From a virus: a stretch of DNA of 26,990 bases. Under the pieces are notes generated by a model that was not told the DNA's origin, did not search any database, and was given only the letters and a program-made list of their open reading frames with translations. The stretch is taken from positions 1 through 26,990 of IMG/VR virus record IMGVR_UViG_3300006751_000101; one strand, given 5' to 3'. Numbering within the stretch: the stretch's first letter is position 1; every line of letters starts with the position of its first letter. A program made the position numbers and the translations under genes. This document shows, in pieces, positions 5,995 to 19,648 of this stretch.

Positions 5995-6290
5995 CGAATA
6001 TATTGTTTGCCTTTTCTATTATTATTAATATATTTTTAATTTGGTATATTGTACAACTTTTGCGCCGCTTTTTGGCCTTTCAAAGTGATTTGGATGAGTT
6101 TGTCTTAAAGCTAGAAGAATACGAAGGACACATAGAAATAGTCCATAATCTGGAAAGATTTTATGGTGATGAGACATTGTCTAATCTTCTTCGGCACTCA
6201 AAAGATGTAGCTCAAGAATGCAAGCAATTTCAAAACGTCATACTAAATCAAGAGGAAGAATATGGCGAGGAAGAAGAGCAAGAGCACTAA
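5991..6290 (+). CDS. Single-pass membrane protein of unknown function
   Basis: The protein is 99 aa. Residues about 4-24 are one strongly hydrophobic segment (ILFAFSIIINIFLIWYIVQL) followed by RR, so an N-out, C-in signal-anchor orientation is likely by the positive-inside rule. The rest is a charged helical cytoplasmic domain with FYGDETLSNLLRHSKDV and an acidic tail (EEEYGEEEEQEH). It starts by an ATGA overlap with the zinc-ribbon gene, and its last 29 bases overlap the sigma factor start, so all three are translated together. No named family recognised. Confidence 0.65.
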   Translation: MTNILFAFSIIINIFLIWYIVQLLRRFLAFQSDLDEFVLKLEEYEGHIEIVHNLERFYGDETLSNLLRHSKDVAQECKQFQNVILNQEEEYGEEEEQEH

Positions 6291-6975
6291 AAATCATTAT
6301 TTCACTAAAGTTCACGAAAATGCGATAATTGCGTATTGTAATACTCAAGATAGTAAAACTCGTAATGATCTGTATAAAGAATTCATTGGCCCCGTCTTTG
6401 ACGAGATGGTCGATAAAATAGTTTATACATACAAGTTTACCAATCTCCCAAATATCGATGTTCTTAGAGAAGATTGTAAAAACTGGCTGATAACTGTGTT
6501 AAACAAGTTTGACCCTTCTAAGGGTTCCAAAGCTTTTACCTATTTCAGTGTGGTATCTAAAAACTGGTTTATCGCGGAGGTCAAAAAAACATCGAAGAGG
6601 GTAAAAAGAGAAATACATATAGAAGATTATTATTTTTCAGATAACAATGAAAGATCCCAACAAAAAAATGGACTTCGACAACTTATTATATACAATACCT
6701 ATTACGAAGACCGAAACCAAAAAGAGTTTCTAGCCCATTTTCATAAAGAGGTCACCTCTTGGAAAAAAATGCCTCTGCGACCCAACGAACGAAAAACCAT
6801 TCAAGCTGTAGAAATACTCTTCAATGAAGCCCAAAACATAGAAATTTTTAATAAAAAAGCTATTTACTTATACATCAGAGAGATTACGGGTTTGAATACT
6901 AAACAAGTTGTAAGTTCTCTAAATAAAATAAGAAAGAAATACGCAGAGTTTAAAAAACAATGGGACGATCAATAA
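6262..6975 (+). CDS. Late-transcription sigma factor, gp55-like
   Basis: The protein is 237 aa, with AGAGGAAG (6251-6258) before ATG 6262. Residues about 67-109 resemble sigma region 2: a helix with DCKNWLITVL, then FDPSKGSKAFTYFS and KNWFIAEVKK, the K-G-x-x-F-x-T/S-Y-F pattern of small phage and ECF sigmas. The C-terminal part (about 195-230: KAIYLYIREITGLNTKQVV, SLNKIRKK) looks like a helix-turn-helix-type end. T4 gp55 is 185 aa and directs RNA polymerase to late (structural) promoters; this is likely its counterpart and would drive the baseplate genes downstream. I see no obvious sliding-clamp peptide at the C-terminus. It overlaps the following gene by 16 bases. Confidence 0.7.
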   Translation: MARKKSKSTKNHYFTKVHENAIIAYCNTQDSKTRNDLYKEFIGPVFDEMVDKIVYTYKFTNLPNIDVLREDCKNWLITVLNKFDPSKGSKAFTYFSVVSKNWFIAEVKKTSKRVKREIHIEDYYFSDNNERSQQKNGLRQLIIYNTYYEDRNQKEFLAHFHKEVTSWKKMPLRPNERKTIQAVEILFNEAQNIEIFNKKAIYLYIREITGLNTKQVVSSLNKIRKKYAEFKKQWDDQ

Positions 6976-7265
6976 AAAATCTAAATGGCTACATTGAAGA
7001 AGCGATTAAAAATATCAGAGACGACAGAGATATTACATCTACTCTCTTAACTAAGATCTTCATAGAAATCAATAAGTCAAGCGACTCACAATCTCACAAA
7101 GATTTGGGTTTCATTGCCGCTAAATATGTAGAAACCTTACAACGTTCGAACGAACAACTAGTAAAACTTACATCTATTTTATCCAAAAAAACAGACAATT
7201 CTGTATCACTTACAGAAGACGATAAGAAAGAACTCTTTGATGTAATTCAGGGAGAAAAGCAGTAG
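6960..7265 (+). CDS. Small helical phage protein of unknown function, coupled to the sigma factor
   Basis: The protein is 101 aa. The ATG at 6960 lies inside the sigma gene's 3' end and has no clear Shine-Dalgarno, so it depends on coupling. It is predicted all-helical: NGYIEEAIKNIRDDRDIT, LTKIFIEINK, AAKYVETLQRSNEQLVKLTS, then a tail with DDKKELFDVI. The tail resembles the short hydrophobic/acidic clamp-binding peptides of T4 late-transcription proteins gp33 and gp55, and the length is close to gp33 (about 112 aa). The helical repeat-like core could also suit a small terminase or scaffold. I cannot choose between these from sequence alone. Confidence 0.5.
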   Translation: MGRSIKNLNGYIEEAIKNIRDDRDITSTLLTKIFIEINKSSDSQSHKDLGFIAAKYVETLQRSNEQLVKLTSILSKKTDNSVSLTEDDKKELFDVIQGEKQ

Positions 7266-8750
7266 ATGGCCGATAGAAGCATATTTAACAATACTATAAC
7301 TCCAGGTTTTGTCGATCCAATCGAAGACCGAGACAGCATTGATCTGTTGAAAAGTGCGGAGGCACAGCTTAGAGAAACAATGCTAGCAAAATACGAACCT
7401 AACAAACTAGACAAGCAAACGGATTTTAATGCTATATGCTTAAGTCAGTTGTCAAACGTTTTGGTGGGTGATAAATCATTAGTTAGAATAAAAGCTCGTA
7501 TACCGGAATTACATAATTTATTACCTGTGCCTAAAAATGCGAATGATTTACAAGCCATAAGTTTGTATCCTACTTTTAAAGCCTCTAAAAGTGATTTCAG
7601 CCCTCAGCCAACCAACAATTCGATTGTTCCCGGCACTCACGTGGTTGTTGGTTTTGATAACGTTGGAAACTTTGCCGATGGTTCTATAAAAAAGATATTT
7701 CATATTAAATCTGCTTCTGACGCGGCAGCAATAACCGCAAAGAAAGCTAAAGAAGCAGCGGAGCGGCCCACAAAATCACCAGCAGGAACAGGAACGAAAA
7801 AAGGCCGGCAAGAAGAAGCTCCAGAAAAATTAGAATTCACTCAATATAAAGATAATGAACCAACGGTTCAAGAAGCGATGAAAGCCGTTATAGCAGCCGA
7901 ACTCAAGCTAGTGAAAGCGACCGTCAGCTCCGGTCCCGGCAAAATCGAATCACTGGGCCCAGCCACATACCCCAAACCCAAAAAAGGCCAAAAGAAATGG
8001 AAATACCCCAAGCGCAGCGGCGGCTGGAGGGGCAGATGTTTACAATATGCTAGTATACTAGCCAATTTAGTGAATGAGGAAGTCGACAAACCATATGGCG
8101 ATTTGAGCATTTGGAAGAAAAATAAGAGAGCCGGGGCCATGTGGAAGAAAAAAGACATCAATGAACACGTATATCAGTGGATCACGAGTCAAAACACACG
8201 CCCGAAAAAAGTTATAACTTCATCTGGTGAGTTTTTTGGGAGAGGATGTAACCTTAGAGACTTATCACAATTAGGCATACTGCCTGGAATGGTGGTGCAT
8301 ATTGACGCGGCTTGGGATAAAAAACCTGCGGCGACGTACCCGCTCGCGCATTCGTTTCATCATTGGTTGATATATGTGGGAGAATCTAACGGCGTGCATT
8401 ACTATTGTGATGGCAAAGGCTTCAAGGTAGCCGCTAGTATGGATGCCTGGTCTCGGGGCTGGTTTGGCGGCCGCCGAGGCCTTAAGAAGCGGGGTCTGAC
8501 TAAAAAGAAAGTAGACAAACTAAACAAAAAAATCCCCCGAAGCGATGGGCTACTGCGGGACGCGAAGAAATTCGTTTTAAAAACGGAGGAGCCTGAGACA
8601 CATGAGTTTAAGGTTGGAGATCGATATTTTAGACAATTTATAGAATATCTAGAATCAAAAGGCCACATAGACGATATAGAAAAAGACATAAAAAACTACA
8701 GCAAACAGCCATTGGTTCGTCATGTATATACATTATGGGATTTAAACTAA
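7266..8750 (+). CDS. Spike/hub protein: gp5-like OB domain fused to NlpC/P60-like cysteine hydrolase
   Basis: The protein is 494 aa and its ATG directly follows the previous TAG, with GGGAG at 7250-7254. Residues about 65-148 read as an OB-fold of the gp5/VgrG hub type (LVRIKARIPELHN, then PGTHVVVGFDNVGNFADGS), after a helical N-terminus. An alanine/lysine-rich linker covers about 150-190. Residues about 250-390 look like an NlpC/P60 or CHAP-type hydrolase: GRCLQYA with C258 as nucleophile, LPGMVVHI (compare PGDLVFF), SFHHWLIYVG with H365/H366, and NGVHYY with H378 in the third catalytic position. It would cut peptidoglycan peptides during tail puncture, replacing the lysozyme of T4 gp5. The hydrolase half is GC-richer than the OB half. 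Related genes at 8755 and 9350 repeat the two halves separately. Confidence 0.65.
   Translation: MADRSIFNNTITPGFVDPIEDRDSIDLLKSAEAQLRETMLAKYEPNKLDKQTDFNAICLSQLSNVLVGDKSLVRIKARIPELHNLLPVPKNANDLQAISLYPTFKASKSDFSPQPTNNSIVPGTHVVVGFDNVGNFADGSIKKIFHIKSASDAAAITAKKAKEAAERPTKSPAGTGTKKGRQEEAPEKLEFTQYKDNEPTVQEAMKAVIAAELKLVKATVSSGPGKIESLGPATYPKPKKGQKKWKYPKRSGGWRGRCLQYASILANLVNEEVDKPYGDLSIWKKNKRAGAMWKKKDINEHVYQWITSQNTRPKKVITSSGEFFGRGCNLRDLSQLGILPGMVVHIDAAWDKKPAATYPLAHSFHHWLIYVGESNGVHYYCDGKGFKVAASMDAWSRGWFGGRRGLKKRGLTKKKVDKLNKKIPRSDGLLRDAKKFVLKTEEPETHEFKVGDRYFRQFIEYLESKGHIDDIEKDIKNYSKQPLVRHVYTLWDLN
7284..7715 (+). repeat. Direct repeat, copy 1 (OB-domain coding unit)
   Basis: These 432 bases align without gaps to 8764-9195 (offset 1480). 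The encoded 144 residues differ at about 22 positions by eye, roughly 85% identity, and many base changes are synonymous. This is a tandem gene duplication, not a mobile element. Confidence 0.85.
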
Positions 8751-8754
8751 ACAA

Positions 8755-9348
8755 ATGTCTTTATTTAACAACACCATAACTCCAGGCTTTATCGATCCAA
8801 TCGAAGACCGAGACAGTATTGATCTGTTGAAAAGCGCAGAAGCGCAACTTAGAGAAACAATGCTAGCAAAATATGAACCTAACAAGCTAGCTAAACAAAC
8901 TGATTTTAACGCCATATGTTTAAATCAACTATCAAATGAATTAGTAGGTGATAAATTGTTGATCAAAGTAAAAGCTCGTATACCAGAATTGCATAATTTA
9001 TTGCCTGTGCCTAAAGATGCGAATGACTTACAAGCCATAAGCTTGTATCCTACTTTTAAGGCATCAATCACAGATATAAACCCACAACCAACTAACGGCT
9101 CAATTACTCCCGGCACTCATTTAGTAGTTAGTTTTGATAACGTTGGAAACTTTGCCGATGGCTCCTTGAAAAAAGTTTTTAATATTAGAACTGCTCCAAC
9201 CACAGCCGCAGCAGATCCTCAAAACCAAGATTTACAAACGGCGGCATTAGGAAGGTCTCAAAAAGATATGCCGCTTAAGGCGATCGGGGCAAAGGGAAGA
9301 CAAACAGCGGCATCTGAAAATCTATTTAGCGACACGGAGATAGCTTAA
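8755..9348 (+). CDS. Stand-alone gp5-like OB-domain spike/hub protein (second copy)
   Basis: The protein is 197 aa, with ATG 8755 four bases after the previous stop and only a weak GGGA upstream. Residues 4-147 repeat residues 7-150 of the preceding spike protein at about 85% identity, including KARIPELHNLLPVP and FDNVGNFADGS. After the OB domain there is a 50-residue alanine/glutamine-rich tail in place of the hydrolase, ending at TAA 9348. It would sit in the central hub or spike ring without enzyme activity. The hydrolase half of this duplicated unit is encoded by the next gene in another frame. It may assemble with the fused copy. Confidence 0.7.
   Translation: MSLFNNTITPGFIDPIEDRDSIDLLKSAEAQLRETMLAKYEPNKLAKQTDFNAICLNQLSNELVGDKLLIKVKARIPELHNLLPVPKDANDLQAISLYPTFKASITDINPQPTNGSITPGTHLVVSFDNVGNFADGSLKKVFNIRTAPTTAAADPQNQDLQTAALGRSQKDMPLKAIGAKGRQTAASENLFSDTEIA
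8764..9195 (+). repeat. Direct repeat, copy 2 (OB-domain coding unit)
   Basis: Second member of the 432-base duplicated block; see 7284-7715. The gap-free alignment shows strong constraint on length. Confidence 0.85.
9336..9339 (+). promoter_or_regulatory. Shine-Dalgarno (GGAG) for the separated hydrolase gene
   Basis: GGAG lies 10 bases before ATG 9350, inside the end of the OB-domain gene. It shows that the downstream half has its own initiation site, so the split is a working arrangement and not simply a frameshift error. Confidence 0.55.
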
Positions 9349-9349
9349 A

Positions 9350-10321
9350 ATGGCGGATTTTAGCGCTTTGAAAGAAGACCGTATCCCATATGGTCATTAT
9401 AAAGACAATATTATCAAAACGCAAGATGTAACTCAAGCGGTCGTAAAGGCTTGGTATCAGTTAGTGTTAGAACTCACACGCACACCAACTGGCCAGCATC
9501 TAACTTGGAAAGGATCCACACAAAATAAAAAAGACTTAGTTTGGCCAGCACCCGCGCAGAGATGGGCCCGCAGCCCGCATCCAAAAGGAGTACCTAAAAG
9601 TGTATGGAAATGGCCACCCGCGACATCTCGCGGTGGTAAGCCGAAAAAAGGTTGGCTTGGTTCGTGTTGGCAATTTGCCGCGAAATTAATACAACTTATG
9701 GACATGAATCTGGCGGGTGTGCCCACCGTCCCGTTTCCGGACGATGCAATCACGGCGAGCAGGCTTTCCAGAAAAGGCGGTACGTCGAAATATCGAACTC
9801 AATATGCCACAGATAAGAAAAAAGACAATTTCATATCCCCAGCCCTAACATTTGGGTATTGTTCTCTCTTGGAAAAAGTACGCACCTCTAATGGTAAGTT
9901 ATTCGGTGCTGGAAATAACATTAAGGATTTATCAAAATTGGGCATATTACCAGGCATGGCTGTTCATGTATGCATGGATTGGGATAACAAGCTTCCTGAT
10001 GACCAAAGAAAGTATACTTTAACAAATTCCTTTCATCATTGGATTGTTTACGTAGGACAAAAAAATGGAACTCATTATTATGCTGATAGTTTTGGAATAA
10101 GAAGCGCTGAAAAGTGTGATCAATGGCTGAAGAAGTGGGCCACTGGACGCCGTAAACCGAATTATAATAAACCCAAATTTGAAAAATTACGTAAATATTT
10201 TTTAAAAAAATATGATAATAAACTCGCTGGTAAGAACAATGCAAAAACATTAAGAGAAATAGACAAATATTCAGCGCAACCATTAGTGCGTTGGGTAGGC
10301 ACTCCTTACCCAATAAGTTAG
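9350..10321 (+). CDS. Stand-alone NlpC/P60-like cysteine hydrolase (tail-associated)
   Basis: The protein is 323 aa and starts one base after the previous TAA. It matches the C-terminal half of the 7266-8750 protein from its YKDN segment onward: GSCWQFA with C106 as nucleophile, the shared LGILPGM, SFHHWIVYVG with H229/H230, NGTHYY with H242, and a common ending (YSxQPLVRxV). Identity is about 40% in the best core and lower elsewhere, against about 85% for the OB halves. It is tryptophan- and lysine-rich before the cysteine. No signal peptide is seen, so it is most likely carried in the tail and not secreted as an endolysin. Residues conserved between the copies support both being active. Cleavage specificity is unknown. 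Confidence 0.6.
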   Translation: MADFSALKEDRIPYGHYKDNIIKTQDVTQAVVKAWYQLVLELTRTPTGQHLTWKGSTQNKKDLVWPAPAQRWARSPHPKGVPKSVWKWPPATSRGGKPKKGWLGSCWQFAAKLIQLMDMNLAGVPTVPFPDDAITASRLSRKGGTSKYRTQYATDKKKDNFISPALTFGYCSLLEKVRTSNGKLFGAGNNIKDLSKLGILPGMAVHVCMDWDNKLPDDQRKYTLTNSFHHWIVYVGQKNGTHYYADSFGIRSAEKCDQWLKKWATGRRKPNYNKPKFEKLRKYFLKKYDNKLAGKNNAKTLREIDKYSAQPLVRWVGTPYPIS

Positions 10322-10330
10322 GATAATTAT

Positions 10331-11950
10331 ATGATAACTTTACAAGCATATGCAGAAAAAAATAATAATGATTTTGAAATTACACTAAAGATAATCAAAG
10401 ATCTAAGTAGTATTTCAAAAATGTCTTTTGTGCTTCCAAAAGAGAAGTCTTCGTTCATTAATTTAACAGAAAATCTTTATAATAGTGGCGATAAGCCCAC
10501 ATACCAAACAAAAAAAGAGTTTAAAGAAGACTTTATTGATTATACTTTAAGTCAAAATTTTGATTTGATTTCTGCACAACAATTAACTGACCACTATAAT
10601 GGCGTTTTTAAGCTTGATCTGGCCGAGGCCATAGATTTAATCAGTAAGCAGGATGATAAATTAGAGGAAGTCTTGGATTCAATTCAAAATCAAAATGAAG
10701 AATTAATAAGTAAATACAATGCCTCACAACCATCTGAAGAAGAAGAAGAAGACGAAGAAGACGATGATAGTGATGATTCAGATTTTCCGGAGACAGTCCC
10801 AGATCCATATGATTGGGACGATGGAAATGCTGCAGCCGAGCCTCCTCCCGCATTTCCGGTTCACAATGATACTCAAAATATAGTCAAAGAGGCAAATAGC
10901 GGTGATGCACCTGGAACAACACCGGTTAAACCCAAAACAGCCAATACTGCTCCAGTCGTAGATTTAAAAGGTTTAGACAATGCTAGCGTAGCAACATTAA
11001 CCACTTTACCTGCAGATATCACAGCAACGCTTAAAGGATGTCTGGGAGATAGATTGATAGAGGCCGTGCCTGCCCTGGTAAAATTTCCAGGCGGTGCATA
11101 TCTTGAGGGCGAAAATAATGCGGCAATTATGTGCAGTCGCGACGAGTTATATGGCCTCAAAGCGCATACTAAATCCGGCGCGGTATATGTAGTTGCAGGA
11201 AGAAGCCCAAACAACATTAAAACAGAGGTAAAAAACAAACCAGGCCAAACTGGGCCGCTTTCCAATACTGCATTAGAAAAACCAAATGATTTGGTGCGAG
11301 ATTCGGCATATTTATATTTGTCTCAAAAGTCAGATCCGCACACATTATTAAGGTGCGCCGGCGGCACTTATGCAAAAAAGTATAATGGCCCAAGCACTAC
11401 TCCGCGAGCTGGATTATCTTTAGCCGCTATTAAAGCTGACGATGTTGTTATAATGGCCAGAGAATCCGGAATAAGATTAATTACAGGAACTGACGCAACT
11501 AATAGTAGTGGCGGCGACCTTACCGCAAAGTTTGGTATAGAACTGATTGCAGGAAACGATGATAGTGATTTACAGCCGCTGGTTAAGGGCGATAATTTAA
11601 AGGAATATTTAGTAACTATGTCCGAGGTAATAAAAAATTTAAGATCGGTATTATATAATTTTATAACTAGCCAATTAGAATATAACGCAACACTGGCTGC
11701 ACACGAGCATTTTGACCCTTTTTCTATATTTATAGGAACTTTGGCTACGGGAAATCCACTTCAGCTTAATGGAGGCAAAGGGTATATATCATCAGAAGTT
11801 GCAACAGCAGGCCTTAAGGCAGTACTCGCTAATGCGCAACAACAGGCCAATGCAATATTGGTGATGCAAAAAAGAATTAATAATGATAATAACGCTTTTG
11901 GTCCTTTAGGTAGTTATAAAATTAAAAGCGAAAAGAATAAAACAAACTAA
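10331..11950 (+). CDS. Spike/needle-like virion protein with acidic linker (gp5 C-terminal-like)
   Basis: The protein is 539 aa, with AGGA overlapping the previous stop. Residues 1-130 are helical. About 134-155 is a near-continuous Glu/Asp/Ser tract, followed by a Pro/Ala linker to about 205. The C-terminal part has short beta-rich repeats (AYLYLSQKSDPHTLLR, DVVIMARESGIRLITGTD, KFGIELIAGND), then KGDNLKEYLVTMSEVIKN and a helix ending in AAHEHFDP. This order, beta-helical strands then a KGDNL helix then an H-x-H segment, occurs in gp5-type needle and related structural proteins of T4-like phages. It probably trimerises as the piercing spike beneath the OB-hydrolase proteins, giving across several genes what T4 packs into one gp5 chain. 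Confidence 0.5.
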   Translation: MITLQAYAEKNNNDFEITLKIIKDLSSISKMSFVLPKEKSSFINLTENLYNSGDKPTYQTKKEFKEDFIDYTLSQNFDLISAQQLTDHYNGVFKLDLAEAIDLISKQDDKLEEVLDSIQNQNEELISKYNASQPSEEEEEDEEDDDSDDSDFPETVPDPYDWDDGNAAAEPPPAFPVHNDTQNIVKEANSGDAPGTTPVKPKTANTAPVVDLKGLDNASVATLTTLPADITATLKGCLGDRLIEAVPALVKFPGGAYLEGENNAAIMCSRDELYGLKAHTKSGAVYVVAGRSPNNIKTEVKNKPGQTGPLSNTALEKPNDLVRDSAYLYLSQKSDPHTLLRCAGGTYAKKYNGPSTTPRAGLSLAAIKADDVVIMARESGIRLITGTDATNSSGGDLTAKFGIELIAGNDDSDLQPLVKGDNLKEYLVTMSEVIKNLRSVLYNFITSQLEYNATLAAHEHFDPFSIFIGTLATGNPLQLNGGKGYISSEVATAGLKAVLANAQQQANAILVMQKRINNDNNAFGPLGSYKIKSEKNKTN

Positions 11951-11962
11951 TAGGTATTTGTT

Positions 11963-14900
11963 ATGTCAAATAAGATAATTAATGAGCTTGCTGGCGGCTT
12001 CAGCGATTGTGCGGATATAATCGCCAAATACAAACAATCAGGCACCGGTGGTGAGATTACACTCGGCCCGTCGTTTTTTAAAAAGTTTAATCCAAGCGTT
12101 ATATGGTTTTTTAGTAAAGTTGAAAGTCAAAGCAAACCTTCTGACGACAAAATTAAAGATGACGCTATATCCACTTTAATTAAAGACGGATATTGTAGCT
12201 CCGCGGAGAAGCCTGGCCATGCTTCAATGAAAATTGGTTGGTGTGGCCAAATAGCGGCGGGAGACGATTCCAATTGGTATTATATTTTAACAACCACAAA
12301 AGCCAGCGTTCTTCAATATTGGAATAAAGAAGTTAATTTTGTAGACTCTACAGGCAAAAAGATAAAAACCAAGACACCACCACCATCAAAAAAGCAAGCA
12401 AATCCTAATCCTAAAAACATAAGCATGACAACGGCAAATGGGTATAATAAGGTTGAAATGGTTTTGGGGGATATTGGAATATATGCCGATGTCGCTTCAA
12501 TTATATTTAAAGCAATGCAGGAGAGAATCGACTTTTTTGATATTCAATTTGATCGGCCGTTTAGCGCAGAAGAATATGCTCTAAAAATAAAATTTTTAAA
12601 CACGCAGATAAGAGGATTGCTACCAGACAATGCGGATAACAAGAAAAAAATTAAATTAATCTTTACACCAGATTTTAAATCTTTAGAACAATTGTGGCTT
12701 TACAACGGCTCGAACTATAAAAAAATATATGAGCGCACCGGAGACGAAACTAGCAAGTTCTCCGATCAAACCTACAACTCACTGGTTTTTAACCTAATAA
12801 GAATATATAATAAGTATAATCAAAGCTTTCAGTATCATCACGCAAGCAGTCGTGTGTTTATTTCAGAAGACGAAGTTAGAACGTTTATGAACAGATATCT
12901 TGTTCCTAAATTTTCTGTTGTTACTTCTAATCTTACGCGCGGCATATTAGATAAATTCGTTTTAGGAGATGCGCGATTAATAGATGATGAATTTTATGAA
13001 GCATATAAAGTATCGCGAGAAGATATTCCTTTTGCTTTTAAAGCCAATTTAACTCAACAAGTTTCACAACAATATGAATATATTGGAGATTTTCTAGGAG
13101 ATAAATGGCTTCAGGGTGCTTTTAAAGAAATCACCAGTCCAGAAGACCTCTATGAAGATTTGTTAAATTACATTAGCATTCCGGACTTGATTAAACTATC
13201 GGCTCGTTGCTTGTTAAAGATGATCCCACTTAAAGAATTGCTAGATTCTATATGTCAGCCCGTATTAGACGAATACGATAAGCACAAAGAAGCCATTATT
13301 CAAGAATTAGAAAGTATGGATGATGGGATTGCTAAAAATCTAGCGCAAGAACTGAAAGAATTATATTTTTCCACCATTGATGAAGGCTTAGATTTTGTAG
13401 GACAAATAGCATCGGAAGGAGTTGCAAACTATTCTGGTGATTTATGGGATCTCACTTTCGGGTATTCAAACTCTCAATGGAACAACAAGTCTAAACTAGT
13501 GAATTTAATTACCGACAATAAAAACAGTATTAGGACAAAAACTAATCTTCTTATAAAAGATAACAATTCGATCGGTATGAAGCTTGCGGGAGTGGAAAAG
13601 CAGATAAAGGATCTTGAGAGCGAAAGGGATAAAATAAGTTCAAAATTGCTCGTTTTCAATAATGTTAATCCACCAGAACATTTAACATCGAATCAAAAAT
13701 ATTATGATGACGAAATTGTTAAACTTGGATTGAGAAAACAAAAACTAGAAGCGGTATATAAAAACTTAATTAAACAAATAAGATTACATAATAGTCTTTA
13801 TGCATATAATTTTGGAGATGTAGCAGGAGATGAAGATCTAACAGTGGCGGCTCTTTTGGGTCATTTTTGGGACGAATTAGGAGATGTAGAAACAGATAAA
13901 TCCAAGAGCATTATACCACATCTAATCAATTTAGATCCGTATATAACTGAAGAGGATAAAACAAGTCTTTTTGATACAATGAAGCTGGCCAAGCCGACAC
14001 CGACCGCGTCAATAAAGATTTTAGCAGACATTAAGTTTCCTATTGCCCCAGTCACACTTAATGATAATACGTATGGTGAAGGTTTCGAATTTATATTTGG
14101 AGGATACAGTGGTTCTCAAAAGGGCAAAAAAGATATTTTTGATCTGAATTTAACTAAAAACGTCAAAGACATATTTAAAGCTATAGAAGCTCTTAATGAT
14201 CCAAGCAGCGACGGCGCGCCGCCAAGCGTACTTAAATCTCTTGCAAATTTCGGCCAGAAAACAACACAATCAGCGCTAGATGAAATATTTGCAGATGATA
14301 CAAAAAGATATCAGCTCTGTTTGGCGATTTATAGCTCCAGTTTGGCAGCTGGTTATTTAATATATCAATTGATTGATGATCCAGCCGCTGTGGGAGATTA
14401 TTTTGCCGATCAAGGCAAGGCGATTTATAAAGGTCTCAAAAGGAGACTAGAGATATTCTCAAGAACAGATTATCCGGTGGTAGATATATTAGCAGAATTG
14501 GGTGAATCCTTGCTTCAGATTGGAATTAATCTAGGAAGAGATTTATTAATAAATGGTATTATGTTGGTATTAAATGGATTGAACGAGTTGTGTTCCGATG
14601 AAGATAAGGTCAATCCACCTTATAATCCAATCGGCGCCGTAGATCTATCATCGTTTATGAAAGATTCAAAGACGGATCCGTCGACTTCATCACCAGCTGG
14701 TAATATAGAGAACACGGATTCTTTTAAACAAATATATTCTATCAGTCCCGATATCACAGGCGAACAATTTAGTACCATTTTAGCTAGTTTGTCTGAAAGT
14801 TTTACGATTAAAGAAACATGTGGTCTTTTGAGTGGAAATATTAGTGATGAAGTGTATTTAAAGGCTATTAGTGTTTTAGAGAAGCTGGATTTCCTCAAGG

Positions 14901-17900
14901 ATACAAAGTTTTATGACTTTTACGTAGGAGCTGGCTTATTCGGAATCAAAAAGTTCTTTAAATTAATATCGCGCGACATTGAGCCGGCATTTTGTGCGCA
15001 AGCCCTCGCTAATTTTGAAAAAGAAAAGTCGGCATTATTAGAAATATGTTTTGGTAGAGATGATAGCGTGTTAGAAAGTATGCTATGCGAAGATCTTACA
15101 CCAGAAGAGTGTCTGCAGCTTTTAGCAACAAAGGCTAACGTACCGAGTGCTTTGGTTGGAAAATTGGTCGCCGGCATGGGAAGCTTATTTACGGATAATA
15201 CTCTTCCAGATCCATGTTCCGATATATCTGGTAGCGGTATATTTGATGATTCGCAAAAATTTGGTGCAGATAAAATTGGAGATTCAACGTTTGGGGCCAT
15301 TGAAAAATCCTTTGAGGCAGATATAAGTAAAATAAAGGATATCTATTCAGATACTTTCATAACTCTCCAGAATAATCCATTTTTCACAAATTACTCAAAC
15401 AATCCTATGAAAAAAGTTGTGCATGCCGCTCTTGTTGGAACCGGAGAAGAAAAAGAAAGTTTAAAAAACGGCGCTATAAATGATTATACTCCGAATAAAG
15501 ACTTTGTAGCTACAAAAATACTTAATGAAGTCGCAAAGTCAACATTCGGTTTAGATCCGAAGACTAACTGGCAGGCAGTATATTCTGGCGATGAGATCAG
15601 TAAGATTGGATATGTATATACGCTTGATACCGTTTCTGGCGAGCATCTTGAATTCTCGTTTGATCCTACAAAAGATATTGAGAAAACTACGAATTGGAAT
15701 ACTAGCTTAGAAGTTTATAAATTTCCCGAGCAGTCGAAAGAGGATGACAAAGTAAAAGATATTTTAGTTTCCAAAAGGACAATCAATTTTAATGATTATA
15801 AGAGACAAACAGAAGAAGATGGTATTATAACAACAACTGTTCGTCCTCCTGATAATATCTTGTTCCGCCTCGAATCTGACGGGAAACCCGGCGTATTTCC
15901 ATTTCCAGGTCTGATATCTCCAGGTATAGCAGTATTACAACCAGGCTATAACACATCTTTAGGTACTAACATAGGCGGATATGCCATGGCCAATAGGCAT
16001 TATAAACGATTGATGGATAGTATATTAAGAGATTTACTTGCTACATCTTTTAAAGAGGGTTTATATAACAAGAGCGTATTTAACAATTTAAATTTAAACA
16101 AGTCAATCAGCTTAGAACAGTGTTTTCTTGGATTTATGAATAAAAGAGTTCTTAATAAACAAATGCAGCAATTAGCAGAAAAGCTAACTTGTTTTAATCC
16201 CGAAGATCCAGCAGTCGGGCCTGTTAATATTGCTATGATAAAATTCTCTTTAGACTGTGTAGTGAGAATCATCGCAATTAAAGAGTTAATGAAATCTTTA
16301 TTTGTATATGGCATTTTTCCAACTGAACTTGCGACAGATAATCAATATTCTTTTTATGATGATTTAATTATTGCCGAAATAGAGCGTTCTATTCCTAAAA
16401 TGATTGGTAGTAGATTTTCAGGCACCTCATATGAGAACTTTTATAACGAGGTCGTAAAAGCTTTTATAACTGATATTATGAAAGTTCTATATCAAGATAA
16501 TACTATAGAACATCAAGAAGCGTTTAAAAGACTGATCTCTGTTCAAGTTAATTTTGCTAAACAGCAAATGAAAAATACCATATCAGGTTCGAATCCAAAT
16601 CTTGCGGGATCTATAACAAAGCCCTCCGAATATCAATTAATTGAATCCGCTTTAAAACCGAAAGATGGAAATAACGATCCGTATCAGAGCTACGAGAATA
16701 TCAATATGCTTGATAAGGTTCAAGCACTGCAGAATGATTATTTTACATTCTTCAATGATACATATAATACGCCTGGAACCGATCCCACATCTGTGGAGTT
16801 TTCCAAAGATGAACCGCTTATACCATTATATGTAAGGAAATCACAAAATACACCAATTAACTATTTTGATCACAAAACACTTCATCTTACATCTTCTACG
16901 TCATTAAAAGACGTCCTTCAAAAAAATGATGAAGGAATTGTTTTTGAGAAAATGATTGAAATTGATTATAACTCATCATTATTAAGCCAAAAAGATAAGG
17001 ATAAATTACGTAGCTTTTTTTCTGCAATAGGCAATTCGCTTATAATGACCAGCAACGATGTAAAACCAATTGCCCCAAATGACGTAGAGGTACCGCCAGA
17101 CATATTTGGGAATTTTCATCCAAGAAAGTTAGTAAAACGCATGCTATATGAAACAAAACTAATAATGTTTTTTCCTCAACTTAAGAGTATTGTTGATAGT
17201 TTTGATGAGGATGAAGGCATATGGAAAAGCCATTTAGATGAAAAAAATGGTAATTTTAATTTATTCAGGCAAATGTTTGATTACAACTTTAATACAATGA
17301 ACAATAATGTTTACGCTGTTCAAGATGTTTTGAACACGATTGATAATATGATTAGGCCGGAATTTCAAGAAGATTTAGATTGGGCGTTTACCGGTAAGTT
17401 TTTTATAAATGACCTTGAAGACTTAATAAACAATCTTGCTTATCCTTTTTGGGTAGATGGCAAAGAATACAATCAAAATCCAGCACTTTTTGACTTACCG
17501 CATAAAAAGGATTTCGGTAGCACATTAGAAGAACAAATTAAGAAAAGATATAGTAAAGAAATGTTTGATACCGCTCAGCACTGGAAAAAATACATAGTCA
17601 ACACATCATTGCATTCTTTGTATATATGGACACATATAATGTATGCACCAGGCAAGAAGCCCTCTTATCCTGAAGACTGGGACTTCCCTGAGGATGCTCC
17701 GGAGCCGGATGATATTATAGAATGGTACAATAAAGTTGATACGTATCAAAACGTCATCGGCATTAATGCGCTTACTGAAGATTCTTGGCTAGATGGATCC
17801 GATGAAAACTTTTTTCAATGGCTGATGTCGACTCCTTTAAATAATGTATTAAAAATAAAACCAGTTTTACGCTTAAGTTCATATATTAAGCGCGAAGAGA

Positions 17901-19648
17901 ATCCTAATAAGGAGCTTGAGCTTCCTCAAAAATCGCTTTTTGGTTCGGCTACAAAAATTGAGACTAAGCAGACTTTAGATCATCATAAAGAGCTAATAGA
18001 AAACAAAATTGGTAATTATATTTTTACGAGTGAAGATGGCGATAGTGATACCTATTTTGGGATGCCTTTATTCTCTTCGCAAAAGGAGATTCCAGATACC
18101 ATAACCTGGCTAGACATGTTTATGAAAATAAATAAAGATGTGGCTATAGACATTGACGGATTTTACAACTCTTTTAGTAATAGCCAAAATAAGAAGCTTA
18201 ACGATTTATTGTTTTCCACCGAGAACGTTGAGGGCGCCCAGAAAGATATTTTTAATTTTATGCACGCATTTAATGCTATTACGCCTTTTTCTATAGAACA
18301 ACAAAAAAAGATATTTGTATACAAATACAAATCTACGCAATGGTTCAATATTCGTAATCGTTCTGTATCAAAAGAAATGATTTTAGAACATGTTGCTTTG
18401 GGTTTAGATGTCGCAAAACACACGTCATTAGATGGAATTCTTGCCGGAGCCGGCTTTGTTAAGTTTGATTTTGTCAAAGAGGAATATGATAACAATCCAT
18501 ACGCTTATTTAACTCCGGAATCTCTTGCATCGTTAACTGAAGATGCAGAGTTTTTTATTGATCCTGAAACTAACGAATACAGACATGATATACCATCTCA
18601 TACATATGCGGCAGGAGGTTTCTCGACAATGTACAATGACTCGGATGCCAGCGTCTATTGGGCCAAGTCAATACCTCTTATCAAGGATAGCCTTAAATGT
18701 AAAGTTGGCGAGTGGGATATTGTGAGCCCGACTACCGGAGATATAATAGTGGAAAAAGCAGATAAATTTATCTCTATTAGAGCATCCTATGAGAATTCTG
18801 AAGGTGTCTTCAGGTGGATAGATTATGGCTGGTTCATGTTTCCCAAAGGCGGCGAGGCCGCTAATCATTTCAATAAAATATATCCTGGTGCTGCATTCGA
18901 AACAAATGCCTCGGATTACGCTCCTAAATGGTTCGACCCTCACCTGTCGCACGCGCCGATGCCGCCGTCGAAGCACATGAATCATGACGATCTCTCCGCC
19001 GCGCTGAAGAACGGCTTTAGGGCCGGCTTTTGTCAAGGAGGTTTGGTAAGTCCTGAAAAAACATTAGAAGCTCTGGATATCGATACAGATAGTTCTGCAT
19101 ATATTGTGTTTGCAAATATGTTGGATGATGCTAATAAACAGACACTAATCGATTTATTAAAAGTGTTTTTCATCAAAGAACAAACTACTATGGTTGCCGT
19201 TATTAATAAACTTTTGGCCGAAAAGTATTATCCTCAAATTGAAACAAACTTTAATAGCACTTTATATTTAGCTTTCGAATCTCTACTAGCAGCAGTCGCA
19301 TCAGCTAATAATGACTGGCAACATACATCCGAAGTTAATTCCACTGCAGCAGCGGGAGATTCAACAGGAGGCCTAGATCTTGGAGCTATATCTGGACAAA
19401 TCTTAAAAATGTTTTTTGGCGCCATGGCTAATACAGTTGACCCGACTTGGAAAACTGAATGGTTCGCGCCTGGTCCTTTTACGCCATTTGGTATAGTGGC
19501 CAAATTGCTAGATGAATATGGCGATGTTTTTAAGGGAGATATAAAAACATCCGGACAAACCAAAGACCCTGCTTTGCCTCCTTATTGCGATGATGCATAT
19601 GATAACCAAGTTAAAGCTCTTAATGAGATTATAAAAAATGAAAAGTAA
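11963..19648 (+). CDS. Giant baseplate/virion structural protein (2561 aa), function unknown
   Basis: This is the largest gene of the window, about 290 kDa, placed between the needle-like gene and gene 25. I see no enzyme domain. A coiled coil of about 90 residues lies near 515-605 (VEKQIKDLESERDKISSK and LRKQKLEAVYKNLIKQI). Hydrophobic helices occur near 785-806 (AIYSSSLAAGYLIYQLI) and 840-870. A cysteine-containing patch lies near 1025-1095 (LLEICFG, MLCEDLTPEECLQLL, PDPCSD). The rest is mixed alpha/beta and rich in Trp, Asn and Asp, with no obvious internal repeats. Position argues for a baseplate hub, wedge or tail-tip component. A tape measure is less likely, since the protein is not uniformly helical. 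Bases about 18900-19030 are clearly GC-richer than the rest. Confidence 0.55.
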   Translation: MSNKIINELAGGFSDCADIIAKYKQSGTGGEITLGPSFFKKFNPSVIWFFSKVESQSKPSDDKIKDDAISTLIKDGYCSSAEKPGHASMKIGWCGQIAAGDDSNWYYILTTTKASVLQYWNKEVNFVDSTGKKIKTKTPPPSKKQANPNPKNISMTTANGYNKVEMVLGDIGIYADVASIIFKAMQERIDFFDIQFDRPFSAEEYALKIKFLNTQIRGLLPDNADNKKKIKLIFTPDFKSLEQLWLYNGSNYKKIYERTGDETSKFSDQTYNSLVFNLIRIYNKYNQSFQYHHASSRVFISEDEVRTFMNRYLVPKFSVVTSNLTRGILDKFVLGDARLIDDEFYEAYKVSREDIPFAFKANLTQQVSQQYEYIGDFLGDKWLQGAFKEITSPEDLYEDLLNYISIPDLIKLSARCLLKMIPLKELLDSICQPVLDEYDKHKEAIIQELESMDDGIAKNLAQELKELYFSTIDEGLDFVGQIASEGVANYSGDLWDLTFGYSNSQWNNKSKLVNLITDNKNSIRTKTNLLIKDNNSIGMKLAGVEKQIKDLESERDKISSKLLVFNNVNPPEHLTSNQKYYDDEIVKLGLRKQKLEAVYKNLIKQIRLHNSLYAYNFGDVAGDEDLTVAALLGHFWDELGDVETDKSKSIIPHLINLDPYITEEDKTSLFDTMKLAKPTPTASIKILADIKFPIAPVTLNDNTYGEGFEFIFGGYSGSQKGKKDIFDLNLTKNVKDIFKAIEALNDPSSDGAPPSVLKSLANFGQKTTQSALDEIFADDTKRYQLCLAIYSSSLAAGYLIYQLIDDPAAVGDYFADQGKAIYKGLKRRLEIFSRTDYPVVDILAELGESLLQIGINLGRDLLINGIMLVLNGLNELCSDEDKVNPPYNPIGAVDLSSFMKDSKTDPSTSSPAGNIENTDSFKQIYSISPDITGEQFSTILASLSESFTIKETCGLLSGNISDEVYLKAISVLEKLDFLKDTKFYDFYVGAGLFGIKKFFKLISRDIEPAFCAQALANFEKEKSALLEICFGRDDSVLESMLCEDLTPEECLQLLATKANVPSALVGKLVAGMGSLFTDNTLPDPCSDISGSGIFDDSQKFGADKIGDSTFGAIEKSFEADISKIKDIYSDTFITLQNNPFFTNYSNNPMKKVVHAALVGTGEEKESLKNGAINDYTPNKDFVATKILNEVAKSTFGLDPKTNWQAVYSGDEISKIGYVYTLDTVSGEHLEFSFDPTKDIEKTTNWNTSLEVYKFPEQSKEDDKVKDILVSKRTINFNDYKRQTEEDGIITTTVRPPDNILFRLESDGKPGVFPFPGLISPGIAVLQPGYNTSLGTNIGGYAMANRHYKRLMDSILRDLLATSFKEGLYNKSVFNNLNLNKSISLEQCFLGFMNKRVLNKQMQQLAEKLTCFNPEDPAVGPVNIAMIKFSLDCVVRIIAIKELMKSLFVYGIFPTELATDNQYSFYDDLIIAEIERSIPKMIGSRFSGTSYENFYNEVVKAFITDIMKVLYQDNTIEHQEAFKRLISVQVNFAKQQMKNTISGSNPNLAGSITKPSEYQLIESALKPKDGNNDPYQSYENINMLDKVQALQNDYFTFFNDTYNTPGTDPTSVEFSKDEPLIPLYVRKSQNTPINYFDHKTLHLTSSTSLKDVLQKNDEGIVFEKMIEIDYNSSLLSQKDKDKLRSFFSAIGNSLIMTSNDVKPIAPNDVEVPPDIFGNFHPRKLVKRMLYETKLIMFFPQLKSIVDSFDEDEGIWKSHLDEKNGNFNLFRQMFDYNFNTMNNNVYAVQDVLNTIDNMIRPEFQEDLDWAFTGKFFINDLEDLINNLAYPFWVDGKEYNQNPALFDLPHKKDFGSTLEEQIKKRYSKEMFDTAQHWKKYIVNTSLHSLYIWTHIMYAPGKKPSYPEDWDFPEDAPEPDDIIEWYNKVDTYQNVIGINALTEDSWLDGSDENFFQWLMSTPLNNVLKIKPVLRLSSYIKREENPNKELELPQKSLFGSATKIETKQTLDHHKELIENKIGNYIFTSEDGDSDTYFGMPLFSSQKEIPDTITWLDMFMKINKDVAIDIDGFYNSFSNSQNKKLNDLLFSTENVEGAQKDIFNFMHAFNAITPFSIEQQKKIFVYKYKSTQWFNIRNRSVSKEMILEHVALGLDVAKHTSLDGILAGAGFVKFDFVKEEYDNNPYAYLTPESLASLTEDAEFFIDPETNEYRHDIPSHTYAAGGFSTMYNDSDASVYWAKSIPLIKDSLKCKVGEWDIVSPTTGDIIVEKADKFISIRASYENSEGVFRWIDYGWFMFPKGGEAANHFNKIYPGAAFETNASDYAPKWFDPHLSHAPMPPSKHMNHDDLSAALKNGFRAGFCQGGLVSPEKTLEALDIDTDSSAYIVFANMLDDANKQTLIDLLKVFFIKEQTTMVAVINKLLAEKYYPQIETNFNSTLYLAFESLLAAVASANNDWQHTSEVNSTAAAGDSTGGLDLGAISGQILKMFFGAMANTVDPTWKTEWFAPGPFTPFGIVAKLLDEYGDVFKGDIKTSGQTKDPALPPYCDDAYDNQVKALNEIIKNEK

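What the first reader, a model, noticed from the sequence alone, without database searches (positions are those of the whole stretch)
7266..10321. Duplicated spike gene whose second copy is split into separate OB and hydrolase genes
One fused gene (OB domain plus cysteine hydrolase) is followed by two genes that encode the same two halves separately, in different frames, with a Shine-Dalgarno before the second half. T4 gp5 keeps OB, lysozyme and needle on one chain. Here they are spread over up to four genes (7266, 8755, 9350, 10331). This suggests a mixed spike or hub in which only some subunits carry the enzyme.
Basis: partly seen in the sequence, partly recalled or inferred. Interest (0 to 1): 0.75.

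Follow-up and report, generated by a model that had tools for sequence, protein, structure and literature searches.

The report
Marine phage spike with mixed subunits
An uncultured virus of bacteria carries two versions of the collar protein of its cell-piercing spike, one joined to a probable wall-cutting enzyme and one without it, plus a loose second enzyme, which suggests that (as in some bacterial toxin syringes) the three-part spike may be assembled from different subunits.

Summary
Intact ORFs lie at 7266-8750 (OB + hydrolase), 8755-9348 (OB alone) and 9350-10321 (hydrolase alone), followed by a needle gene at 10331-11950. The OB fold is supported by a confident model whose best matches include phage and eCIS spike OB domains. 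The hydrolase is probably papain-like (C-H-D), but only weakly supported.

The copies are not one event: the OB halves are 85% identical and under strong purifying selection (dN/dS about 0.09), while the hydrolases are only about 39% identical. And a separate needle gene is normal in this clade.

About 60 related uncultured-virus loci share the order sigma - gp33-like - OB-enzyme - needle - giant gene. Most have one OB-enzyme gene, whose enzyme varies. Several lineages have exactly three tandem OB genes carrying three unrelated C-termini; others have two, or a single bare OB. The window's closest relative has one OB fused to a different enzyme.

Best reading: a gp5-like spike divided into a "gp5*" gene (OB + enzyme) and a "gp5C" gene (needle), which would let the OB ring be heteromeric, like V. 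cholerae VgrG1/2/3. Mixed trimers are inferred, not shown. An indel artefact at the split cannot be excluded.

The parts
6262..6975 (+). late sigma factor gp55-like gene; anchor of the conserved operon
   Evidence: phrog_234 E 1.3e-5; relatives in 80 viral contigs
6960..7265 (+). gp33-like small gene (name inferred from position and clade conservation)
   Evidence: conserved between sigma and OB gene in nearly all loci of the clade; no Pfam family
7266..7700 (+). OB1: N-terminal OB domain of the fused gene
   Evidence: 85% identical to OB2; OB HMM E 1.4e-29; fold from the OB2 model
7701..7844 (+). low-complexity linker of the fused protein
   Evidence: identity between copies drops here; the equivalent OB2 tail has pLDDT below 65
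7845..8750 (+). hydrolase 1, probable papain-like thiol hydrolase; candidate triad C258, H365/H366, D382
   Evidence: LRAT (NlpC/P60-like) E 0.0016, below gathering; invariant C, H, H, D shared with hydrolase 2
8755..9348 (+). OB2: stand-alone OB protein, 197 aa, no enzyme domain
   Evidence: AF2 pLDDT 85 or more in blocks 51-140; structural matches to P1, Mu, A-1(L) and eCIS spike chains; dN/dS 0.089 against OB1
9336..9339 (+). GGAG Shine-Dalgarno-like motif before the stand-alone hydrolase
   Evidence: sequence, 10 nt before ATG 9350
9350..10321 (+). hydrolase 2: stand-alone relative of hydrolase 1; candidate triad C106, H229/H230, D246
   Evidence: about 39% identity to hydrolase 1; weak model whose structural neighbours are nearly all papain-like or NlpC/P60
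10331..11950 (+). separate central needle (gp5C-like beta-structured spike) gene
   Evidence: needle profile matches the C-terminal part of spikes of related phages that have a longer N-terminal region on the same chain: L073 E 6e-43, hhalign E 4e-12; 61 related ORFs in the fetched loci

Best explanation
This is the central-spike operon of a distantly T4-like, uncultured phage. The three-chain collar of OB domains that joins hub to needle is encoded separately from the needle, as T4 gp5* is separated from gp5C after cleavage. Because the needle (which drives trimerisation in T4) is on its own gene, the OB positions can be filled by different chains. Here OB1 carries a papain-like, probably peptidoglycan-cutting, hydrolase and OB2 carries none, so mixed OB trimers would put one or two enzymes instead of three at the tip. 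The stand-alone hydrolase 2 is either docked non-covalently to the spike or baseplate or delivered free. Shown here: gene anatomy, homology, OB fold, purifying selection on OB1/OB2, clade-wide separation of OB-enzyme and needle, and other lineages with two or three OB paralogues bearing unrelated C-termini. Inferred: mixed trimer assembly, enzyme activity, location of hydrolase 2.
For: OB fold: pLDDT 85 or more in residue blocks 51-140; VIA-align Z 8.2 to phage P1 baseplate chain 9vzk_q, 7.3 to Mu 9ki1_V, 7.1 to A-1(L) 8kea_D, 6.3-6.7 to eCIS spikes, mixed with other OB proteins such as IF1; BFVD hits include a Gp5/T6SS Vgr OB-fold protein and a cyanophage baseplate hub + tail lysozyme. Synteny: sigma - gp33-like - OB gene - needle - giant gene, then gp25 and gp6 where the contig reaches; OB profile found in 58 genes of the related loci plus the window pair, in none of 1055 shuffled proteins. 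Needle homologous to the C-terminal part of longer spikes outside the clade. Enzyme modules on the OB gene elsewhere: VanY, SLT, M74, M23, phage lysozyme, muramidase + VanY. Arrays of exactly three OB genes between gp33 and needle in L030, L050, L089, L090, L091/L092, C-termini without mutual similarity within each array, array positions grouping across four lineages. OB1/OB2: dS 0.96, dN 0.085, ratio 0.089, so both copies are maintained. Precedents: T4 (gp27-gp5*-gp5C)3, with gp5C responsible for trimerisation (PMC3004832); V. cholerae heterotrimeric VgrG with enzyme-less VgrG2 the most important member (PMC8668125).
Against: No complex was modelled; trimer composition is inferred from gene number and precedent. 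PMC8668125 itself concludes for Aeromonas that multiple effectors, not a VgrG heterotrimer as such, are required. Most relatives have one OB gene, so mixing is not a requirement. One locus has two OB genes, so three is not universal. Hydrolase fold and activity rest on a low-confidence model and sub-threshold Pfam hits. OB similarity between this clade and the one-chain spikes is weak (best full-sequence E 5.5e-4 in a small set).
Confidence: 0.5

Rival explanations
1. Two homotrimers: OB1 and OB2 each assemble only with themselves, so virions are a mixture of enzyme-bearing and enzyme-less spikes, or only one type is packaged.
For: Single-OB relatives show that one kind of OB chain suffices; L025/L026/L028 show that a bare OB protein can be the only one.
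Against: OB cores are 85% identical and constrained, so interfaces that exclude each other are unlikely; three-gene arrays retained in several lineages with three different C-termini fit co-assembly better.
Confidence: 0.17
2. Sequence or assembly error: OB2 and hydrolase 2 are really one fused gene, and the window has two full OB-hydrolase paralogues, like the two-gene locus L069.
For: The two frames are one base apart and meet within about 8 nt at the linker; every other multi-copy locus has complete fused genes.
Against: Other genes of the window, including a 2561-aa ORF, are unbroken; the hydrolase start has its own GGAG and TAA-A-ATG spacing; the split region carries extra residues relative to the fused linker. 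No second record across the junction was found, so it is not independently tested.
Confidence: 0.15
3. Evolutionary transit: the second copy is decaying after a module swap and has no lasting role.
For: Hydrolase modules are richer in GC (0.447 and 0.412) than neighbours (about 0.33-0.38), pointing to acquired modules; the OB2 branch is longer than OB1 (0.11 v 0.037).
Against: OB1/OB2 dN/dS 0.089 with dS about 1, full-length ORFs, and retained C/H/D residues in hydrolase 2.
Confidence: 0.1
4. Hydrolase 2 is a soluble lysis or entry enzyme unrelated to the spike, and OB2 is simply a small spike subunit.
For: It has no OB domain and its own ribosome-binding site.
Against: It lies inside the spike operon and is the relative of the spike-fused hydrolase 1.
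Confidence: 0.08

Closest known systems
T4 gp5 (gp5* + gp5C), tail lysozyme and needle
   Same: N-terminal OB domain followed by a cell-wall enzyme; beta-structured needle; late-gene and baseplate neighbours
   Different: In T4 one chain cleaved after assembly (PMC3004832); here OB-enzyme and needle are separate genes, the enzyme is a different type, and there are two OB paralogues, one bare
VgrG1/VgrG2/VgrG3 spike of Vibrio cholerae T6SS
   Same: Several spike paralogues, some with C-terminal effector domains and one without, reported to work as a heterotrimer (PMC8668125)
   Different: VgrG carries hub, OB and needle on one chain (own knowledge); here the OB protein is apart from the needle, and the system is a phage
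Central spikes of Anabaena phage A-1(L), phage Mu and phage P1
   Same: OB fold of the spike (structural matches Z 7.1-8.2)
   Different: The A-1(L) spike is one trimeric protein with OB and beta-strand parts, and its hydrolytic activities are on the hub, not on the spike (PMC10966104)
Relatives L030, L050, L089-L092 (uncultured viral contigs)
   Same: Same operon; several tandem OB genes before a separate needle gene
   Different: Each OB gene there has its own, mutually unrelated C-terminal domain; none is bare or split
Papain-like / NlpC-P60 hydrolases
   Same: C then H then D order; weak LRAT match; structural neighbours of the model
   Different: No match above a curated threshold; low-confidence model

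Membership tests
gp5-type spike protein (OB + enzyme + needle) | N-terminal OB fold like that of contractile-tail spikes | tested here: met
   confident barrel; matches to P1, Mu, A-1(L) and eCIS spike chains, Z 6.3-8.2
gp5-type spike protein (OB + enzyme + needle) | cell-wall hydrolase domain after the OB domain | tested here: inconclusive
   fused domain present; fold only weakly indicated; relatives carry recognised peptidoglycan hydrolases in that place
gp5-type spike protein (OB + enzyme + needle) | needle on the same chain | tested here: not met
   needle is a separate gene at 10331-11950 in the window and across the clade
gp5-type spike protein (OB + enzyme + needle) | trimeric assembly on the hub | not testable with these tools
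   no complex prediction available
Heterotrimeric VgrG-like spike | several spike paralogues in one genome, with different or absent C-terminal domains | tested here: met
   window: OB + hydrolase and OB alone; triple arrays in relatives
Heterotrimeric VgrG-like spike | paralogues physically assemble in one trimer | not testable with these tools
   would need co-purification or cryo-EM
Heterotrimeric VgrG-like spike | VgrG sequence family | tested here: inconclusive
   no Pfam or NCBIfam VgrG match in the window proteins at the thresholds used; only fold-level similarity of the OB domain
Papain-like / NlpC-P60 thiol hydrolase | catalytic Cys-His-polar triad in that order | tested here: inconclusive
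   invariant C, HH and D in both copies in the right order; catalysis untested
Papain-like / NlpC-P60 thiol hydrolase | papain-like fold or curated family score | tested here: inconclusive
   LRAT below gathering; neighbours nearly all papain-like but Z at most 4.8 and mean pLDDT 40.8

The most novel reading that the evidence does not exclude
A large uncultured clade of T4-like phages has uncoupled the OB-enzyme collar from the needle and thereby evolved heteromeric spikes: in several lineages three OB chains, each with a different C-terminal domain, make one spike tip; in this phage enzyme-bearing and enzyme-less OB chains mix, with an extra free hydrolase.
Probability: 0.42. Interest if true: 0.78.

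Novelty: new variant of a known kind. Interest (0 to 1): 0.6.

Why it matters
Phage spikes are usually treated as homotrimers with three identical enzymes. A phage group that encodes two or three different OB platforms before one shared needle would show how spikes can carry several different wall-cutting activities at once, and would give a phage counterpart to the heteromeric VgrG spikes of type VI secretion. It also offers a ready comparison set (one, two or three platforms; bare or armed) for testing what the tip enzyme contributes.

Tried and rejected
Close relatives of the fused protein: none in phage records (tblastn) or by peptide scans of viral contigs. Hydrolase relatives: none in the phage records, viral contigs, PDB sequences or genome contigs, so its donor is unknown and its alignment has only two members, which probably explains the poor model.

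A joint alignment with the stand-alone hydrolase misplaced it, so the two domains were modelled apart. Plain Foldseek of the hydrolase model gave no significant hit. NCBIfam gave nothing for the window proteins and the seven array members tested, and PHROGs nothing convincing for the OB and hydrolase proteins. A search of 'relatives' is not possible for a virus record. Literature searches for heteromeric phage spikes, or for OB modules with varied enzymes, found no such report in the held library; most subscription papers are not held.

Rejected: recent simple duplication followed by a frameshift (different divergence of the halves); pseudogene OB2 (dN/dS 0.089).

Full report
Observation. The window holds an unbroken run of genes of a distantly T4-like phage. 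OB1 (7266) and OB2 (8755) are 85% identical over about 140 residues; the hydrolase halves are about 39% identical. OB2 ends at 9348, the stand-alone hydrolase starts at 9350 with GGAG 10 nt upstream, and the hydrolase frame has its own stop just upstream, at 9341-9343.

Age of the pieces. The OB cores have dS 0.96 and dN 0.085 (ratio 0.089), so both have been kept by selection for a long time. Synonymous difference is 0.54 in OB and 0.76 (saturating) in the hydrolase (Fisher p 0.0008). The two halves therefore do not share one duplication history: either the OB parts were duplicated or homogenised later, or one hydrolase was exchanged. The hydrolase modules are also richer in GC (0.447 and 0.412) than their neighbours, as expected of acquired modules; this is inference.

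What the domains are. An AlphaFold2 model of OB2 from 31 sequences has a confident barrel. Its best structural matches are the P1 baseplate chain 9vzk_q (Z 8.2), Mu (7.3), cyanophage A-1(L) (7.1) and eCIS spikes (6.3-6.7), among other OB-fold proteins such as IF1; viral-model matches include a Gp5/Vgr OB protein and cyanophage tail-lysozyme hubs. The Z values alone are middling, but OB fold plus position in the operon make a spike collar the natural reading. The hydrolase has conserved C, HH and D in papain order (C258, H365/366, D382; C106, H229/230, D246), sub-threshold LRAT hits in both copies, and a poor model (pLDDT 40.8) whose structural neighbours are nearly all papain-like, including NlpC/P60 wall peptidases such as MepS and LytE, at Z no higher than 4.8. 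It is a probable, not proven, thiol hydrolase.

Relatives. An alignment of the gp55-like sigma factor brought in 80 loci from IMG/VR. Most share the order sigma - gp33-like - OB gene - needle - giant gene, followed by gp25 and gp6 where the contig reaches. An iterated OB profile matches 58 of the related genes plus the window pair and no shuffled protein; the E-values are for a small set, so the shared synteny is part of the evidence. The needle gene matches the C-terminal part of longer spikes in more distant relatives (L073: E 6e-43; hhalign E 4e-12), whose N-terminal part on the same chain matches the OB profile only weakly (E 5.5e-4). So in this clade the OB-enzyme part and the needle are separate genes, which corresponds to the products of T4 gp5 maturation cleavage, gp5* and gp5C (PMC3004832).

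Varied enzymes and arrays. The C-terminal part of the OB gene differs from phage to phage: VanY, SLT, M74, M23, phage lysozyme, muramidase plus VanY, and a phosphatase-like domain (several of these matches are below Pfam's gathering score). Of 58 non-redundant sigma-anchored loci, 53 have one gene between gp33 and needle, and L009 also has one that overlaps the needle ORF; L030 and L050 have three, L069 has two, and L038 one large gene plus a small ORF. A further scan seeded with the L030 OB domains, hence a biased sample, added L089, L090 and L091/L092 with exactly three, each array running from gp33 to needle. Within each triple array the OB domains are 47-67% identical while the C-termini show no mutual similarity. 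The three positions group by position across L030, L089, L090 and L091, well supported for position 1 and less for positions 2 and 3; the three L050 copies group together, apart from these. Enzyme modules also move between positions (for example L030 third and L089 first). L025/L026/L028 have one bare 197-aa OB gene. The closest relative of the window, L007, has one OB gene fused to an M74-type peptidase.

Mechanism. In T4 the C-terminal needle drives trimerisation of gp5 (PMC3004832), which ties three identical OB-enzyme chains to one needle. If the needle is separate, the OB ring can be mixed. Three tandem OB genes, each with a different C-terminus, retained in several lineages, fit a 1:1:1 ring; the window fits a ring of enzyme-bearing and bare chains. 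V. cholerae provides the working precedent: a heterotrimeric VgrG requirement with an enzyme-less VgrG2 that seems the most important member; the same paper argues that in Aeromonas the requirement lies in the effectors, not in VgrG itself (PMC8668125). Shown: sequences, homology, fold of OB, selection, arrays. Inferred: trimer composition, activity, and where hydrolase 2 goes.

Limits. Even if OB2 and hydrolase 2 were one gene, the window would still have two OB paralogues, like L069. That the phage is marine is an inference from its relatives and is not tested here.

Verdict. A new variant of a known kind (gp5/VgrG-type spikes).

Noticed in passing
L025:10977-11570 (same in L026, L028): A single bare OB gene of 197 aa directly before the needle gene; no enzyme found next to it and none by Pfam in the following 2411-aa gene.
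   Followed up: partly
L030:10961-12295, L091:3196-4665: OB proteins whose C-terminal part matches dual-specificity/tyrosine phosphatase families (below gathering), a surprising activity for a spike; L090:3457-4758 is a 49% relative of the L030 one.
   Followed up: partly
L053:10965-13193 and L064:10992-13445: Two peptidoglycan enzymes (muramidase and VanY) on one OB chain.
   Followed up: no
window 11963-19648: A giant 2561-aa ORF between needle and gp25; its first 999 residues have no match in phage records; large ORFs lie at the same place in the relatives.
   Followed up: no
window 10331-10960: An N-terminal extension of about 210 aa with an acidic stretch on the needle protein; L007 has a needle of similar length (525 aa), other needles are about 300-400 aa.
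   Followed up: no
window 7950-8550 and 9450-9750: GC rises to 0.45-0.50 over the hydrolase modules against about 0.33-0.38 around them.
   Followed up: partly
L107: A 6.3 kb contig filed under an Actinomycetes MAG carries the sigma gene followed by ORFs of gp33, OB-gene and needle size; probably a phage contig binned with the MAG, so not host evidence by itself.
   Followed up: no
BFVD A0A1B1IUR3, A0A1B1IUR4, A0A1B1IUT8: Top viral structure matches of OB2 have near-consecutive accessions and sizes of 440-472 aa, possibly another tandem array.
   Followed up: no
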